Of a stretch of 25,004 nt of DNA, positions 7,735 to 19,158 are shown piece by piece. Both the position numbers and the translations under genes were made by a program. The stretch is taken from the IMG/VR virus record IMGVR_UViG_3300030090_003676, positions 1-25,004 of that record. One strand, written 5' to 3'. The notes beneath the pieces are model-generated. The model was not told where the DNA came from. It saw nothing but the letters and a program-made list of their open reading frames with translations, and did no database searches. Numbering within the stretch: position 1 is the stretch's first letter; each line of letters begins with the position of its first letter. The stretch comes from a virus.

Positions 7735-7992
7735 ATGGATGCAAGCATTAAACCAACCAACCCGTTTTCTCCGGCGACATTGACAATTGCTATGAGTGAT
7801 ATGACCAATCTCGGTCGCTCTGTTGTTGTCGATTTAATCATGGTGCAAGTTATCGCAATGGTGCTTGGCACATTCTTGCTTATTGTGACCAACGGCTATC
7901 AAATGACCTCGACGCAGTTGGTTTGGTCAATGCTCATTCTATTCACAGCCTTCACAATGACTGGTGTAGTTTACAGGCGACTATCTAATTAG
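7735..7992 (+). CDS. small two-pass membrane protein
   Basis: An 85-aa protein starting at ATG 7735, five bases after the previous stop. Two hydrophobic segments, at about 30-52 (VVVDLIMVQVIAMVLGTFLLIV) and 60-79 (LVWSMLILFTAFTMTGVVY), make a hairpin membrane protein with a short basic tail. It has the size of a holin, but so do many small viral membrane proteins, and no lysis gene is next to it. It is the last + strand gene of the cassette. Its TAG stop overlaps the stop of the convergent minus-strand gene. Confidence 0.8.
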   Translation: MDASIKPTNPFSPATLTIAMSDMTNLGRSVVVDLIMVQVIAMVLGTFLLIVTNGYQMTSTQLVWSMLILFTAFTMTGVVYRRLSN

Positions 7993-8240
7993 TCCCATTT
8001 GCCAAGCGGGCATTTGCTGTTTTTGAGTGTCGTCTTGGTTTTCATAAAACAACCACATTCACGACACCGTGAGCCTGTCCATGCAGGGCACTCAAGACAT
8101 ATTTTCATGCGCTCTTCTGCCTTTTCGGGTGTTACTTGATTGCGCATAGCCATGTCTTTTGCCGCTTTCATCAAGTCTTTTGCTGTCTTTGCCGTGATAG
8201 GTATGCCAGCAACGCGCGGCGCTCGGTTAAGTCGTCTCAT
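7989..8240 (-). CDS. small cysteine-rich zinc protein
   Basis: This minus-strand gene encodes 83 aa from the ATG at 8240; a TTG at 8261 would add seven residues. A helical basic N-terminus is followed by a Cys cluster: CLECPAWTG, then SRCRECGCFMKTKT, then SKCPLGKW. This CxxC / CxxCGC-FMK / KCPLGKW layout is a familiar short zinc protein in marine tailed phages. I know no confirmed function for it. It lies antisense between two + strand units: its stop overlaps that of the convergent gene ending at 7992, and its start faces the divergent gene at 8293 (or 8239). The family resemblance, not the reading frame alone, is the reason for calling it. Confidence 0.85.
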   Translation of the reverse strand: MRRLNRAPRVAGIPITAKTAKDLMKAAKDMAMRNQVTPEKAEERMKICLECPAWTGSRCRECGCFMKTKTTLKNSKCPLGKWD

Positions 8241-8292
8241 GAGTGTGGCGTCTAGCCGCAACCCCTTTGAGTTATCGGCCTATCGGAGACTG

Positions 8293-8973
8293 ATGGCGGA
8301 GAGAATCACCCGAGCGTCGTGTCGGCTTTGCCAGCACGAAGACCGTGATGAATTGGAAAAAGAATTGCGCGAAGGTATTGTCACACCAAAGGAACTCGAC
8401 AAGCGCATGGGGTGGCGTGAAAACACAACTGACCGGCATTTTAGAAACCACATGGGTGACTACCACATGGCGTCCAATTCAGAATGTAAAGTCTGCACCC
8501 ATTTCAATCGATTTGCAATCGAAGAGGATTTCTACAACGGTGACACAACAACCGAGGCAATTGCGGAACAGTGTGGTTGCTCGGAGACCACAGTGTATCA
8601 TCATTTCAAGCATCATCTCAAACCCCTAGTGCAAGCATCAGCCGCGCCAGTTATTGCGATTAAAGCCGGGCAAGAGATGGAAACACTGCGTTCAAACGTC
8701 GAGAAATTGAATGGAGAATTGGGACACCTGTTTGATAATCCTGACCGCAACGACCCTGCGTTCTACGCCAATTTGACGCGTATGCACAAAGAGACGCGCG
8801 AGACAGTCAAAGACATTCTCAAAATACAAGAGCGCGCGATGGGTGGTAACACTGAGTCGTCCATTACCGCCAACACTGTGAATCTCATCAAAGTTGAATT
8901 GGCAAAAGAATCGCCTGAAGTATGGCGACGTATTCGTTCACAGTTGGTCGAAGACGGAGAGGATGAAAGTTGA
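8293..8973 (+). CDS. tandem zinc/helix-turn-helix protein, probable small terminase subunit
   Basis: A 226-aa protein from the ATG at 8293, with GGAG at 8285-8288; ATG 8239 in frame would add 18 residues and overlap the start of the divergent gene. It contains two copies of one module: Cys10-x2-Cys13 with His49 and His53, then Cys65-x2-Cys68 with His104 and His108. Spacing is identical in both. Each module carries a helix-turn-helix-like segment (TPKELDKRMGWRENTTDRHF and TEAIAEQCGCSETTVYHHF). CxxC plus HTH plus HxxxH proteins of this kind are found beside phage packaging genes and are often annotated as terminase small subunits. The C-terminal half is helical. TerL lies about 4.8 kb downstream, farther than usual, so another DNA-binding role remains possible. 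Confidence 0.7.
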   Translation: MAERITRASCRLCQHEDRDELEKELREGIVTPKELDKRMGWRENTTDRHFRNHMGDYHMASNSECKVCTHFNRFAIEEDFYNGDTTTEAIAEQCGCSETTVYHHFKHHLKPLVQASAAPVIAIKAGQEMETLRSNVEKLNGELGHLFDNPDRNDPAFYANLTRMHKETRETVKDILKIQERAMGGNTESSITANTVNLIKVELAKESPEVWRRIRSQLVEDGEDES

Positions 8974-13799: not shown

Positions 13800-15191
13800 G
13801 TGTCTCAGTTTGATGACCCGATTCTTGAAATAGATTGGGAAATGAGCAAGAAAGACTTCACGTTCTTCTTCCAAGACATCCTCGGGTGGCAATTGTCACA
13901 TCATCACGCCGCATGGGTGCATAATCTGCATACTCACGACCGATATTGCGTAAAAGCGGCTCGTGACCACGGAAAATCCGTACTTTTTCTCTCCTACCTG
14001 CTATGGCGCGTTGCATTTACGCCAAAAACGAAGGCAATCATCTTTTCTCACTCACTTGACCAAACAATTCGTCACATGCGCTTCATGGATGACATGATTC
14101 AGTCCACACCTATCCTCAAACACCTGCGTTCAAAAGATTCGTGGGCCAAAACGTACTTTGGATTCACCAATGGGTCATTTGTAAGCGCAAAATCGGTTGG
14201 TGGCGCGGTTCGTGGCGCGCACCCTGACATTATCCTGTGTGACGACATTCTGTGGGGCACCACTGACACTGAATTGCAGAAAGTGGCCTCATGGTTCTAC
14301 GAAGTCATGGTCCCAACCCTGCACCACAGTGCGAAATTGATGATTGTCGGTACACCGTTTACACCGACTGACCTTTACACAGAACTGGAATCAAAAGACG
14401 GGTATCTTGTTGAGACATATCCCGCGATAAATGAGAGGGGTGAGTGTCTTTGGCCTGAACGATGGGACTTGGACGCACTCGATGTGCGCCGAAAAGACAT
14501 GCCCGCTGTCGCATTTGCGCGTGAATACTTGTGTGAGCCCATTGATGACGCAAGCAGTCTGTTCCCAACCGCAGTCTTGCAACCATGCCGCGACCGAGGA
14601 TTGTCGCTTTACTCGCGCAGACCTGAAGATGATGATGCGCAGTATTTCATTGGGTGGGACCCAGCGATTTCATCCGATAGGTCGGCCGACTATACTGTAA
14701 TGATTGTCTTACGGCAACAGATTGATGACCCGATTCTTGAAATTGTACATGTTGTCAGGCGAAAGGGTATGGATTTCCGCACACAAATCATGGAAATCCA
14801 GCGGTTGAATGCAAAATTCTCCCCTGACGTTATTGAGTTGGAAGCCAACCATTTTCAGCGCGTATTTGCAACCGAGTTGCGAGCCAATACTGACCTGCCC
14901 ATCAGGACATTCATTTCGTCCAAAACTAAGCGCGAATCAATGCTTATGGGTTTGGTCTTGAGGTATGAGCGCGAGCAAATACGCATGCCATACGCAGACG
15001 AATCGAGTCGTGAAATAACTCACACATTGGAAAATGAATTGCTCATGTTTGGGATGAGCCAAAAGGGAAAACTTGAATCGATTGGTCGTCACGACGACTT
15101 CGTGATAGCCCTTGCGCTCGCACAGTGGGCGACGACCGAATTCCGAGAGAGACTTGTTGATTTGTCTGATTTGATGCCGGGGCTGATATGA
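13800..15191 (+). CDS. terL: terminase large subunit
   Basis: A 463-aa packaging motor protein, which uses ATP to translocate DNA through the portal and cuts it with its nuclease domain. The start is GTG 13800, six bases after the previous stop. Visible motifs: Walker A AARDHGKS at 53-60; the typical segment AVRGAHPD leading to Walker B DIILCDD at 143-149; and a coupling segment with VGTPF near 182-186. The RNase H-like nuclease has Asp287 in FIGWDPAISSD, acidic Asp343/Glu346 in DVIELEAN, and a final acidic pair at 432-433 in GRHDDFVIALA. Length and order match a complete TerL. It is followed, with a 4-base overlap, by the LAGLIDADG-containing gene and then portal, a usual packaging order. 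Confidence 0.96.
   Translation: MSQFDDPILEIDWEMSKKDFTFFFQDILGWQLSHHHAAWVHNLHTHDRYCVKAARDHGKSVLFLSYLLWRVAFTPKTKAIIFSHSLDQTIRHMRFMDDMIQSTPILKHLRSKDSWAKTYFGFTNGSFVSAKSVGGAVRGAHPDIILCDDILWGTTDTELQKVASWFYEVMVPTLHHSAKLMIVGTPFTPTDLYTELESKDGYLVETYPAINERGECLWPERWDLDALDVRRKDMPAVAFAREYLCEPIDDASSLFPTAVLQPCRDRGLSLYSRRPEDDDAQYFIGWDPAISSDRSADYTVMIVLRQQIDDPILEIVHVVRRKGMDFRTQIMEIQRLNAKFSPDVIELEANHFQRVFATELRANTDLPIRTFISSKTKRESMLMGLVLRYEREQIRMPYADESSREITHTLENELLMFGMSQKGKLESIGRHDDFVIALALAQWATTEFRERLVDLSDLMPGLI
13810..13831 (+). repeat. 22-base direct repeat within terL, copy 1
   Basis: The 22 bases here are identical to 14722-14743 in the same gene and the same frame, 912 bases apart. Both copies encode DDPILEI. 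Confidence 0.9.
14722..14743 (+). repeat. 22-base direct repeat within terL, copy 2
   Basis: Second copy of the 22-base repeat. It lies just after the first nuclease aspartate of TerL and gives QIDDPILEI. Confidence 0.9.
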
Positions 15192-16675
15192 TGTGGGGGA
15201 GCAGATTGGTGGGTGATAATTACGACGCACCTGTTGAAGGCTTAGACCCTAATCTTGCACTCATTGTCAAAGAATTGGCACAACACCCCGAATTCAGTAA
15301 GTCCGGTGATATATCATTGCCTAAAATGGGCGATGCTACGCCAACACCTTCCCAAGGCCAAGGGACATTGAGCCCAAAACAAAATGAAGGGATAGCCGAC
15401 CCTAGAGCAGAAAAAGAGCGCCGTCAGAAATTGATGGCAACGGCTCAACAACTTGGTGTAGAGGCTGGCGGCGCACCTCCTGAGCAAATGCAGTTATCCA
15501 TGCCCGTCTCGGGCAATGGGTGGTTTGAGACATATTTCGGCAAACCTGCTGAAACACTTGTCAAGGATTTGAGAATGGCGCGACGGACTCACAAGGATTT
15601 CAAAGTGGACATTGATGATGCAATTACAGCAGTGCGTCTTGTCAAGCGCATGGAAGTCGATGAGACGTTGAAAGCAATACCGTGGAGCGGCAATCATGAA
15701 AATTCTATGCGCAATCTTGGTTTATCAGACCGTGACTTGACAGCATTGCGCAAGTATGCTACACCGCGCGAAGTAAGTTTGAGACAGGCGTGTGTTATGT
15801 GGGAACGTGCAGATTCTACAATTGAGCGATTGAACAAACACGAAGACGTGTGGGGTTCAGTTGAGCAAGCGGAATGGCTTGAGGCGTTGCAGTTGAAGAA
15901 GGATGCGAAGAAGCAGTGGAAGAATACATTGCATCAAGTTGACAATCTCTCAAAGAGCGAGGCCACATGGCTCACAAAATCCGTTCATTTCCTCGATACT
16001 AATGGTGTGACACAGACTCGCGCACTGTGTGAGAACATCAATGACCGCAATTTGACTACGCAGAAACTTGGTACGTTACTCAAAATGTATGGTGAAGACT
16101 TTGGTATTGTCAAAGCATCACGCAGTGCGTGGTCTTTGTTGCGCACCAATGGTACTATTCTTGTAAAAGACCCGTGGGCATACGCGGCAGGCTTTATTGA
16201 CGCTGATGGTTACATCACCATCACCAAACGTGGTGAGCCGCGCGCTGGAATAATTGCCACAGGTGAACGAGGACGTGTTCATTGTGAGAATTTGCACAAG
16301 GTTCTTGGTTGTGGCGTTCTACAACTCGACCTGAAAATTCACAAGAACAGTGTCCGTAGTCAACATCGACTTCAATTCTATTCCAAAGCCGATTTGCATA
16401 AATTGCTGAAAGGTGTTGAGCCACACTTGCACTTGAAAAAACAACAGGCCCGTGCCGTTATGGAACTCTTGGGACTTGGGCGCGAGGATATAGCAAAAGC
16501 ACGCAAGGCTGAATTGCAACGAATTGTCAAGTGGAACAATTGGAAAGACACAAAGGCGGATGACCTACTCGCGGAATGGGGCGTAGATGTGGAGACGGTC
16601 GAAAAATGGGAGACGCGCGACCCCGAAATCGTGCAACTTGGTATCGAAGCCGAGCGTTTGATGGGTGGTCTATGA
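15188..16675 (+). CDS. protein with C-terminal LAGLIDADG endonuclease-like domain
   Basis: A 495-aa protein from ATG 15188, overlapping the terL stop by 4 bases (ATG 15191 is also possible). Residues 1-90 are polar and probably flexible. About 95-320 is a charged helical region, with a possible winged-helix-like segment at about 290-325 (LTTQKLGTLLKMYGEDFG). YAAGFIDADGYITI at 332-345 is a clear LAGLIDADG motif, followed by the expected beta-rich part (LDLKIHKNSVRSQHRLQFYS) to about residue 430 and a helical tail. One motif means that, if active, it would work as a dimer. No intein splice residues are seen and the gene is unbroken. It may be a homing endonuclease fused to a viral domain, or a LAGLIDADG fold reused for DNA binding. 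The N-terminal half is unrecognised. Confidence 0.82.
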   Translation: MMWGSRLVGDNYDAPVEGLDPNLALIVKELAQHPEFSKSGDISLPKMGDATPTPSQGQGTLSPKQNEGIADPRAEKERRQKLMATAQQLGVEAGGAPPEQMQLSMPVSGNGWFETYFGKPAETLVKDLRMARRTHKDFKVDIDDAITAVRLVKRMEVDETLKAIPWSGNHENSMRNLGLSDRDLTALRKYATPREVSLRQACVMWERADSTIERLNKHEDVWGSVEQAEWLEALQLKKDAKKQWKNTLHQVDNLSKSEATWLTKSVHFLDTNGVTQTRALCENINDRNLTTQKLGTLLKMYGEDFGIVKASRSAWSLLRTNGTILVKDPWAYAAGFIDADGYITITKRGEPRAGIIATGERGRVHCENLHKVLGCGVLQLDLKIHKNSVRSQHRLQFYSKADLHKLLKGVEPHLHLKKQQARAVMELLGLGREDIAKARKAELQRIVKWNNWKDTKADDLLAEWGVDVETVEKWETRDPEIVQLGIEAERLMGGL

Positions 16676-17100
16676 TGAGCGCGTTTTCACAGGCATGGCA
16701 GATTCTCAAAAGAGAAGACGATTACATCAGGGAAGAATTGGCACGGATGGGTGGACAGCACGAACAAGAAATCTTTGGTGCTGGTGCCGATGATGATGCC
16801 GCACTTTCTGCCATTCGCTCTACTGATGGTGGCTCATGGTATGACCATTTGAAGCGACTCAAGCAACGCGAAGAAGATGTGTTTGATGAAGCGAGTCAAG
16901 AGGCTGAATTGTCCATGAGTCAGCCCCCCTTCCTTACCCCATCTGAGAGACAGAGAGCAATCGAGAATTTGAAGTGGGGCAAGCGCCACGCTGTAAGGCG
17001 GATATATCCGCCTATGGGTCACCACGACCGCCGGGAGATTCACCGTCGTGCAGGGAGTCTGCCTGAACGCTTTTCTGAATATAGGGTTGATGTAGAATGA
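16672..17100 (+). CDS. small hypothetical protein with AWxxLK N-terminus
   Basis: A 142-aa protein from ATG 16672 (ATGA overlap of 4 bases; GGGTGGT at 16664-16670 upstream); ATG 16675 is equally possible. The N-terminus MMSAFSQAWQILKRED resembles that of the protein at 612-1760 and the C-terminus of the one at 12462-13793. The rest is charged and helical, with a basic C-terminal part (WGKRHAVRRIYPPMGHHDRR). No family is recognised. It lies between the LAGLIDADG gene and portal in one transcript. Confidence 0.78.
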   Translation: MMSAFSQAWQILKREDDYIREELARMGGQHEQEIFGAGADDDAALSAIRSTDGGSWYDHLKRLKQREEDVFDEASQEAELSMSQPPFLTPSERQRAIENLKWGKRHAVRRIYPPMGHHDRREIHRRAGSLPERFSEYRVDVE

Positions 17101-17300
17101 AGAAGCCAAAGGGTGTCGCTGTGATGCGCATTATGATTAAGCCGAAGAAGGGCGGGTCGGATGAGTCACCTGTTGACGACGACCCGGACGACGACTATGA
17201 CGGCCCACAGGATGATGAGAGCGGGCACGGTGAAGGCATGAAGGAAGCCATGAAATTGATTCAATCGTTGTTAGGCGGAGGTGACGAAGAAGATGCCTGA
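17097..17300 (+). CDS. small acidic protein before portal
   Basis: A 67-aa protein from ATG 17097, with a 4-base overlap with the upstream gene. A basic N-terminal 20 residues is followed by a strongly acidic, Asp/Gly/Pro-rich middle (about 21-46) and a short amphipathic helix (MKEAMKLIQSLLGGG). No family is recognised. Its end overlaps the portal start by 8 bases and contains the portal's Shine-Dalgarno, so translation of the two is probably coupled. Confidence 0.65.
   Translation: MKKPKGVAVMRIMIKPKKGGSDESPVDDDPDDDYDGPQDDESGHGEGMKEAMKLIQSLLGGGDEEDA
17277..17283 (+). promoter_or_regulatory. ribosome binding site that sets the portal start
   Basis: GGAGGTG lies nine bases before the ATG at 17293. 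The alternative GTG at 17281 falls inside this site, so ATG 17293 is taken as the start of the portal gene. Confidence 0.75.
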
Positions 17301-19158
17301 TGAAGAGCAGTCCCGAATCGGCCGATTTCTCGGTGCGCTGACCAAACCGTTCCGGCGTTCCTCTACACCTGAACCACAAATGCCCTTGTGGAAGGCAGGT
17401 ATTCAAGAGCCTGTCCTCGTGCAGGGTGTCACAATTCCCGCGCTGTATGCGACAGTGCAAGAATCCATCATTCTCCGTACCACAATCAACACACTGTGTC
17501 AGGAAATTTTCAGGCGCGGTTACTATTGGGAGAAGAAATTCCACAAGAAGTGTATAGAGTGTGATGAGGAATATCAGCATGATGTTGAAGTTTGCACATT
17601 GTGCGGTGGTGAAGTTAGGGAACCTGATGTTGACCAATTGATGTACCCAAAGTGGTTGCTTGAACAGCGTAATGACCAAGACCAATCCTTCTACGATGTG
17701 ATGCGCGAAGTCGAATGGGACCTGAATATCGTCGATGATGCGTTCCTTGTAATGCAGAAGGAATACTTCATCGATGAGAAGACCAAAGAGACAGAGTTTT
17801 TCCGTATCAAGTCCTTGATGCGCGCTGACCCTACGTTCATGCGACTCGTTGCAGACAAGCGTGGTGTGCGCGGTGGGCGCTGGTTGATTTGCCCACGCGC
17901 GTCATGCAGAGACAAGACATACCCGCATAACGACGAGCATTCAGAATGTGAGCGATGTGGGCAGATGTTGCAAGATGTGTGGTTTGTCAACAGCGCGGGT
18001 GCTGGCAAAACGCAGTATTATCTTGAAGGTGAAGTCATCCACATATCAAAATTCAATCCATCCAAACTCTATGGGCGCAGTCCTGTCGCGACCATGTGGC
18101 GCCAAGCGATGACGCTGGCCGCGATGGACAACTACATGTATTTGGCATACTCAAAGCGCAGAATCCCGCGTGGTGTTCTTGCGATTACTACGGACAACAT
18201 TCAATCTACTGCATCGTTTTGGAAGGGTGCCGAAGAGAAGATGGAGCGCGACCCGCACTACATTCCGAAAGTCGGTATCGAAAGTGCGTCAGGTCGCGGT
18301 AAAGTCGAATTCGTTAGATTCATGGACAGCATGGACGAGATGCAATATGCACAAGTGCGTGACGAGATTCGTCAGCGCATTGCATCGTTCTATGGTGTGT
18401 CCAACATCTTCATGATGGACACCGGTAAAGGTGGACTCAATAACGAAGGTATGCAAATCCTTGTCACGAATCGCGCAGTCGAGTTTGGACAGCACATTTA
18501 CACCCGCGATTTATTCCCGCGCATGTTGGAAGAAATGGGTGTCACTGATTGGAAAGTCACACTCTACCCGAACGAAGAAGAGGATGATGTCACACGACTA
18601 CGGCGCGACGAGATGGAAGTCAATGTCGCACAGCGTATGACCCAACTTGGGTTCCAACCTGAATTGAAAGAAGATGCCGCGCGTGATATTCGTTTTGTTT
18701 ACAAGAAGCCTGAACCGGAGGAAGCCGCTATGGGAGGCCAGCCACCTATGGGAGGAGGCGCGCCACCTATGGGAGGTGGGATGCCACCACCAATGCCGGG
18801 TGGAATGCCCGGAGGTATGCCCGGAGGTATGCCCGGCGGGCGCGGAATGCCACCCGGACGCGGAATGCCACCCGGAGGTGCGCCACCTATGGGAGGTGGA
18901 ATGCCACCCGGAGGCATGCCAATCCAGCGCGGTGAGCCAATGGCAGGTCTCGGTGAAAGCACAGGGATGCGTGACAGAGGCCCTGCGCCTGTTGAAGAAG
19001 TGCAAGGTCAAAGTGGTCATCCGACCGGCGGTAAGAAGAAACAGCGCGGGTCAGAAAAGGGGCCAATGGAGAAAGTTGTTGACGCGATTGAAAGTGCCAA
19101 AGAAGGGGCCTATATGGGCGTGAATGGCAAGCGTAAGGAATCAGGCTTCAATCAGTAA
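17293..19158 (+). CDS. portal protein with zinc ribbons and Met/Gly/Pro-rich tail
   Basis: A 621-aa portal protein, forming the ring at the capsid vertex through which TerL packs DNA. Portal features include the N-terminal IGRFLGALTKPF region, a core with VIHISKFNPSKLYGRSPV, a helical stem region (AMDNYMYLAYSKRRIPRGV), and QRIASFYGVSNIFM with TGKGGLNNEG, typical of portal wing and crown segments. Two zinc-ribbon-like sites are inserted: CIEC (87-90) with CTLC (101-104), and Cys200/Cys205 with Cys219/Cys222. Residues about 480-545 are a repetitive Met/Gly/Pro-rich tract, followed by a charged tail. ATG 17293 is supported by its Shine-Dalgarno. Position after terL agrees. The call rests on core motifs and context, not on a search. 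Confidence 0.88.
   Translation: MPDEEQSRIGRFLGALTKPFRRSSTPEPQMPLWKAGIQEPVLVQGVTIPALYATVQESIILRTTINTLCQEIFRRGYYWEKKFHKKCIECDEEYQHDVEVCTLCGGEVREPDVDQLMYPKWLLEQRNDQDQSFYDVMREVEWDLNIVDDAFLVMQKEYFIDEKTKETEFFRIKSLMRADPTFMRLVADKRGVRGGRWLICPRASCRDKTYPHNDEHSECERCGQMLQDVWFVNSAGAGKTQYYLEGEVIHISKFNPSKLYGRSPVATMWRQAMTLAAMDNYMYLAYSKRRIPRGVLAITTDNIQSTASFWKGAEEKMERDPHYIPKVGIESASGRGKVEFVRFMDSMDEMQYAQVRDEIRQRIASFYGVSNIFMMDTGKGGLNNEGMQILVTNRAVEFGQHIYTRDLFPRMLEEMGVTDWKVTLYPNEEEDDVTRLRRDEMEVNVAQRMTQLGFQPELKEDAARDIRFVYKKPEPEEAAMGGQPPMGGGAPPMGGGMPPPMPGGMPGGMPGGMPGGRGMPPGRGMPPGGAPPMGGGMPPGGMPIQRGEPMAGLGESTGMRDRGPAPVEEVQGQSGHPTGGKKKQRGSEKGPMEKVVDAIESAKEGAYMGVNGKRKESGFNQ
18730..18935 (+). repeat. Met/Gly/Pro coding repeat in portal
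   Basis: Short units such as ATGCCCGGAGGT and CCACCTATGGGAGG recur many times and encode GGMPGGMPGGMPGG and PPMGGG blocks. The DNA is a degenerate tandem repeat prone to length change. Most units are multiples of three, so the frame is kept. Confidence 0.85.

What the first reader, a model, noticed from the sequence alone, without database searches (positions are those of the whole stretch)
15188..16675. LAGLIDADG domain fused to a long viral protein between terL and portal
YAAGFIDADGYITI is an unmistakable LAGLIDADG motif, but it sits at residue 332 of a 495-aa protein that is part of the packaging transcript with overlapping genes on both sides. Free homing endonucleases near terL are known. 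A fusion to a 330-residue helical region is unusual and could mean the domain was adopted for DNA binding or cutting in packaging.
Basis: partly seen in the sequence, partly recalled or inferred. Interest (0 to 1): 0.7.

Follow-up and report, generated by a model that had tools for sequence, protein, structure and literature searches.

The report
Homing-endonuclease domain kept as core gene
A family of tailed viruses, probably of marine archaea, keeps a DNA-cutting-enzyme fold, normally found in selfish genes, as a permanent single-copy gene between its DNA-packaging motor and portal genes, which suggests it was taken over to handle viral DNA during packaging.

Summary
In detail: 15188-16675 is one intact 495-aa gene whose residues 327-430 form a single-motif LAGLIDADG domain of the I-CreI/I-MsoI type (Z about 14.8). 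It is not a free homing endonuclease. In every relative of the group found through the portal gene alone (127 loci) the same fused protein is present; in 149 distinct loci it is one open frame in the fixed order TerL - LAGLIDADG protein - portal. It is single-copy in 17 of 17 records, follows the portal phylogeny and is under purifying selection like TerL and portal. The LAGLIDADG domain is the best conserved part of the protein, and the equivalents of I-CreI Asp20 and Lys98 are invariant in 130 of 130 sequences. The N-terminal half was never found without it. More distant druskavirus-like relatives (18 of 18) lack it; some have TerL directly next to portal, others a sporadic HNH gene there. 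Most likely it is a domesticated DNA-recognition and probably DNA-cutting factor of the packaging module, acting like the HNH packaging nuclease of HK97 but with an unrelated nuclease fold. The packaging role and the cutting activity are inferred, not shown. A separate TerS-like gene lies upstream. The viruses resemble magroviruses.

The parts
15188..16675 (+). LAGLIDADG protein, 495 aa, single ORF between terL and portal
15503..15952 (+). residues ~106-255: conserved all-helical domain of unknown family
   Evidence: AF2 model; alignment A2; no convincing sequence match in PDB or PHROGs
15953..16138 (+). residues ~256-317: predicted winged-helix-like segment (H-s-H-H-strand-strand)
   Evidence: predicted topology only; no curated HTH family convincingly matched
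16166..16477 (+). residues 327-430: LAGLIDADG domain, single motif, I-CreI/I-MsoI type; D340 and K417 invariant
16478..16672 (+). residues 431-495: C-terminal helical tail (lost in the deviant subclade)
13800..15191 (+). terL, large terminase; ATPase and nuclease motifs intact
16672..17100 (+). 142-aa protein of unknown function, found only in the closest relatives
17097..17300 (+). 67-aa acidic protein, close relatives only
17281..19158 (+). portal protein; closest named relatives are Druskaviridae portals
8293..8973 (+). candidate small terminase: tandem Cys/HTH modules followed by helices; first gene of the packaging operon (226 aa from ATG 8293)

Best explanation
The gene encodes a domesticated LAGLIDADG protein that is a permanent part of the virion-assembly/DNA-packaging module of a group of magrovirus-like tailed viruses, presumably of marine archaea. 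Shown: a real I-CreI-type fold (predicted structure), fused to a helical plus winged-helix-like N-terminal region, vertically inherited at one fixed place, with the two key catalytic residues invariant. Inferred: the LAGLIDADG domains of two protomers pair, bind a specific site in viral DNA and nick or cut it in concert with TerL at the portal (initiation or genome-end processing), as the unrelated HNH protein gp74 does for HK97 TerL; the N-terminal half would supply docking to TerL or portal and extra DNA contacts.
For: Presence and place: all 80 loci of a portal-only scan and all 47 further group members of a second portal scan carry the fused protein; order TerL < N < C < portal in 149 of 149 distinct loci, 125 with the portal match starting within 30 nt of its stop. 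Single copy in 17 of 17 records. Vertical descent: supported splits of the N-part tree compatible with the portal tree 87/89, C-part 64/72, against 70/77 for TerL versus portal. Constraint: median dN/dS 0.044 for the LAGLIDADG part, 0.037 for TerL and for portal; mean identity of the LAGLIDADG region 0.76 against 0.31-0.53 elsewhere in the protein (set chosen through that domain) and 0.63 for the C part against 0.44 for the N part in the wider set. D340 (I-CreI D20) and K417 (I-CreI K98) invariant 130/130 (mapping). The strands that contact DNA in I-CreI are among the most conserved stretches, as expected if the DNA target is shared by the whole group. Known analogue: HK97 gp74 promotes cos cleavage (PMC9410871); HEG domestication for genome-end processing was proposed in PMC10448857.
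Against: TerL has its own intact nuclease motifs and a TerS candidate lies upstream, so packaging may not need another nuclease. I-CreI Q47 is replaced by Thr (T358). A five-sequence subclade has a deviant motif (AADFLESDG), loses the C-tail and varies at T358, though D340 and K417 stay. No conserved DNA target was found near the module: an 18-bp palindrome in the window is not conserved, and exact 15-mers are shared by at most 10 of 34 diverse loci. The long contigs start at scattered positions relative to the gene, so fixed genome ends are not supported. No physical interaction with TerL or portal was tested.
Confidence: 0.5

Rival explanations
1. Domesticated but non-cutting: the LAGLIDADG domain is only a DNA-binding or dimerisation scaffold, as in WhiA, and the protein serves as a structural, regulatory or DNA-docking factor of the head module.
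For: The deviant subclade tolerates loss of the motif Gly and first Asp and changes at T358. WhiA is a precedent for a LAGLIDADG domain plus HTH kept without catalysis (PMC3781837).
Against: Unlike WhiA, the equivalents of I-CreI D20 and K98 are invariant in 130 of 130 sequences.
Confidence: 0.25
2. It is itself the small terminase of this group, with the LAGLIDADG domain as pac/cos-site reader.
For: Winged-helix-like plus helical regions and adjacency to terL and portal.
Against: A better TerS candidate (tandem HTH, helices) heads the same operon at 8293-8973 and is conserved in more than 20 loci; the LAGLIDADG protein lies downstream of terL and is long for a TerS.
Confidence: 0.1
3. An anti-competitor nuclease: it cuts genomes of co-infecting related viruses and is retained for superinfection exclusion.
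For: Key catalytic residues kept; such use of phage homing endonucleases is known from other phages (own knowledge).
Against: Universal presence in the group leaves few site-bearing competitors without the same enzyme; fixed fusion and operon position.
Confidence: 0.07
4. An ordinary selfish homing endonuclease that happens to be fixed.
For: LAGLIDADG fold; terL neighbourhoods are hot spots for homing endonucleases (PMC10448857); the sister druskavirus-like group has sporadic HNH genes at the same spot.
Against: No empty site within the group in 127 portal-found loci, congruent trees, purifying selection, one copy per record, no intein features.
Confidence: 0.05

Closest known systems
I-CreI / I-MsoI (homodimeric LAGLIDADG homing endonucleases)
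   Same: Fold (Z 13-15), single motif, positions of D20 and K98
   Different: Fused behind about 325 extra residues; no intron or intein seen; universal in its group and vertically inherited; Thr instead of Q47
HK97 gp74 and other HNH proteins of phage packaging modules
   Same: Nuclease-family protein encoded beside terminase/portal and conserved with the module
   Different: Unrelated nuclease fold; no biochemical evidence yet; much longer protein
WhiA (LAGLIDADG-HTH transcription factor)
   Same: Domesticated LAGLIDADG domain combined with an HTH-type module
   Different: WhiA order is LAGLIDADG then HTH and its catalytic residues are lost (PMC3781837); here the order is reversed and key residues are kept; no WhiA Pfam model matches
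Druskaviridae HNH gene between terL and portal (HCTV-5 gene 106)
   Same: Nuclease gene at the equivalent position next to a homologous portal
   Different: HNH fold, free-standing, sporadic among relatives

Membership tests
LAGLIDADG superfamily | alpha-beta-beta-alpha-beta-beta-alpha core with the motif helix | tested here: met
   AF2 model versus I-MsoI: 2fld_A Z 14.8, 128 residues at 2.3 A
LAGLIDADG superfamily | conserved acidic motif residue and active-site Lys | tested here: met
   D340 and K417 in 130/130
Mobile homing endonuclease | sporadic distribution with empty sites among close relatives | tested here: not met
   present in all 127 portal-found group loci
Mobile homing endonuclease | gene tree independent of the host genome tree | tested here: not met
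   splits largely compatible with portal and TerL trees
Mobile homing endonuclease | sequence-specific double-strand cleavage of a target | not testable with these tools
   needs biochemistry
HNH packaging protein (HK97 gp74 type) | HNH domain | tested here: not met
   domain is LAGLIDADG
HNH packaging protein (HK97 gp74 type) | conserved gene beside terminase/portal | tested here: met
   149/149 distinct loci
HNH packaging protein (HK97 gp74 type) | stimulates TerL cleavage | not testable with these tools
   needs biochemistry
WhiA | WhiA_N / LAGLIDADG_WhiA / HTH_WhiA domains in that order | tested here: not met
   none found in 24 members; order reversed
Small terminase (TerS) | pac/cos-binding oligomer that activates TerL | not testable with these tools
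   a separate TerS-like gene exists
Intein-borne endonuclease | Hint splicing domain and flanking exteins | tested here: not met
   no Hint/intein Pfam hit in 24 members; N-terminal part predicted helical and no C-terminal extein
Magrovirus-like viruses (virus group, not the protein) | about 90-118 kb genome, PolB, chaperonin, druskavirus-related portal | tested here: inconclusive
   Cpn60 in 16 of 16 long records, PolB in 4 of 14 records searched, many of them fragments, portal 29% to HCTV-5; no named magrovirus reference available

The most novel reading that the evidence does not exclude
An active, site-specific LAGLIDADG endonuclease serves as an obligatory extra subunit of the genome-packaging machine of a major group of marine archaeal viruses, cutting the viral concatemer at a conserved site.
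Probability: 0.3. Interest if true: 0.85.

Novelty: new variant of a known kind. Interest (0 to 1): 0.6.

Why it matters
Domesticated homing endonucleases are few (WhiA and yeast HO are the usual examples; HO from own knowledge), and nuclease helpers of packaging are known only with the HNH fold as far as I found. Here a LAGLIDADG domain has become a universal, strongly constrained core gene of a widespread uncultured virus group. If it cuts at packaging, it would show how a selfish nuclease at the terL hot spot turns into genome-end machinery, and it makes the open question of selfish versus domesticated nucleases beside terminases testable.

Tried and rejected
Frame error or chance motif: rejected (one frame in 149 loci). 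Intein: no Hint domain. Free homing endonuclease: distribution and trees argue against. N-terminal half as a free-standing family: no match without the LAGLIDADG part; an alignment scan with it alone could not be run because it has no stretch conserved enough, so the test rests on portal-found loci. Fold of the helical N-terminal domain: not identified; its sequence profile gave nothing, and the fold searches are filled by LAGLIDADG rows, so a known fold is not excluded. BFVD hit A0A516LD89 (533 aa, 472 columns, E 1.6e-19) may be a full-length relative in another virus, but it has no name here and no full-length match exists in INPHARED. Host marker AmoC: no hit, but the control was silent too. 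Target site: conserved palindrome or shared word searched near the module, none found. Paper searches combining LAGLIDADG with magrovirus, terminase or portal terms found no description of this gene; the main magrovirus papers Philosof 2017 and Prabhu 2025 are not held.

Full report
Check of the observation. The window is the first 25 kb of a 38.3-kb IMG/VR virus record. ORF 15188-16675 is open, 495 aa, overlaps terL by 4 nt and the following gene (true start 16672) by 4 nt. TerL and portal are confirmed by PHROGs and Pfam. Residues 330-433 match phrog_5046 (2.2e-11), and the family profile matches I-MsoI and I-CreI in the PDB through the motif helix and the helix that carries I-CreI K98. An AlphaFold2 model from 24 relatives (mean pLDDT 77; LAGLIDADG blocks mostly 85-90, lowest 75) gives the canonical LAGLIDADG order of helices and strands at 329-429, and aligns with I-MsoI/I-CreI at Z 13-15. 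The overall model has pTM 0.44, so the domain arrangement is not reliable.

Architecture. Residues 1-110 are mostly low-confidence, 112-248 helical, 256-317 winged-helix-like by predicted topology, 327-430 LAGLIDADG, 431-495 a helical tail. No family was found for the helical part.

Distribution without ascertainment through the LAGLIDADG domain. The first relatives were found through the protein itself, which biases toward its presence, so portal-only scans were run. Scan 1 kept 80 loci, and all 80 have N and C parts just before the portal. Scan 2, ranked by similarity to the portal of halovirus HCTV-5, added 65 new loci: 47 belong to the marine group (portal about 30% to HCTV-5) and all carry the protein; 18 belong to a druskavirus-like group (portal 55% or more) and none does. 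In that second group TerL lies directly next to portal (L218, L220) or an HNH gene sits between (L216, L217, L231). So the gene is a clade-wide feature, not a sporadic insert. Exactly one copy was found in each of 17 records. Each portal scan kept only its best 80 of more than 400 hits, so lower-ranked relatives were not inspected, and some loci of different scans come from the same contig.

Inheritance and selection. In 149 distinct loci that hold all four parts, the order is always TerL, N, C, portal, in one open frame, and in 125 the portal match begins within 30 nt of the stop. Supported splits of the N-part tree are compatible with the portal tree in 87 of 89 cases, of the C part in 64 of 72; TerL against portal gives 70 of 77. 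dN/dS medians are 0.064 (N), 0.044 (C), 0.037 (TerL), 0.037 (portal). Within the protein, the LAGLIDADG region is by far the most conserved (a set biased to this domain; the wider set gives 0.63 against 0.44), including the strands that contact DNA in I-CreI. Homing endonucleases usually decay after fixation (PMC13405050); this gene does not look like that.

Active-site residues. By the profile alignment, D340 corresponds to I-CreI D20, K417 to K98 and T358 to Q47 (I-CreI numbering from own knowledge). D340 and K417 are invariant in 130 of 130 distinct proteins; T358 is kept in 125. Five proteins (L194, L199, L204, L206, L209) read AADFLESDG, so the motif Gly and first Asp are gone, T358 varies, and the tail is lost, yet D340 and K417 remain; their C part evolves faster (omega about 0.08-0.15). 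This leaves both a cutting and a binding-only role open for the family, with the balance toward retained chemistry in most members.

Which viruses. The portal's nearest named relatives are Druskaviridae, to which magroviruses are distantly related (PMC10768690). Sixteen of 16 long records encode a Cpn60 chaperonin and several PolB, both listed for magrovirus relatives. Host assignment to marine archaea is inferred; no named magrovirus record was available for comparison.

Mechanism. A TerS-like gene (8293-8973; tandem Cys/HTH modules, then helices) heads the same operon, and TerL keeps its nuclease motifs, so the protein need not replace either. The best analogue is the HNH protein gp74 of HK97, which promotes cos cleavage with TerL (PMC9410871). 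The sister group's HNH genes at the equivalent place fit the view that the terL/portal spot is repeatedly visited by nucleases that can be selfish or domesticated (PMC10448857). I therefore favour a domesticated packaging nuclease or DNA-docking factor (0.5), with a non-cutting WhiA-like role as the main rival (0.25). A search for a shared DNA target near the module was negative, and the scattered contig starts give no support for fixed ends, although metagenomic contigs cannot settle that.

The reported LAGLIDADG-like pattern in the herpesvirus terminase subunit pUL56 (PMC6950143) is a short motif claim and was not used as evidence.

Noticed in passing
window 8293-8973: TerS candidate with two Cys-rich HTH modules and a helical C-terminal half, conserved upstream of terL; the mechanical ORF start at 8140 is too early.
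   Followed up: partly
L194, L199, L204, L206, L209: Subclade whose LAGLIDADG motif has changed to ADFLESDG and whose C-terminal tail is lost, while the D20 and K98 equivalents remain.
   Followed up: partly
window 17281-19158: Portal proteins of this group carry conserved CxxC pairs that look like zinc-binding inserts; several are also kept in the HCTV-5 portal.
   Followed up: no
window 16996-17013: Perfect 18-bp palindrome AGGCGGATATATCCGCCT inside the 142-aa gene; about 0.2 palindromes of 16 bp or more expected by chance in the window, and it is not conserved in relatives.
   Followed up: yes
L089 (PAUP01000076.1): A contig filed in a Cytophagaceae MAG carries this viral module; probably a misbinned viral contig.
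   Followed up: no
window 16166-16477 (phrog_5046): PHROGs labels phrog_5046 'HNH endonuclease', although the matching region here is a LAGLIDADG domain.
   Followed up: no
window 7989-8261 (-): Small minus-strand ORF just upstream of the TerS candidate; the DNA there aligns across relatives.
   Followed up: no
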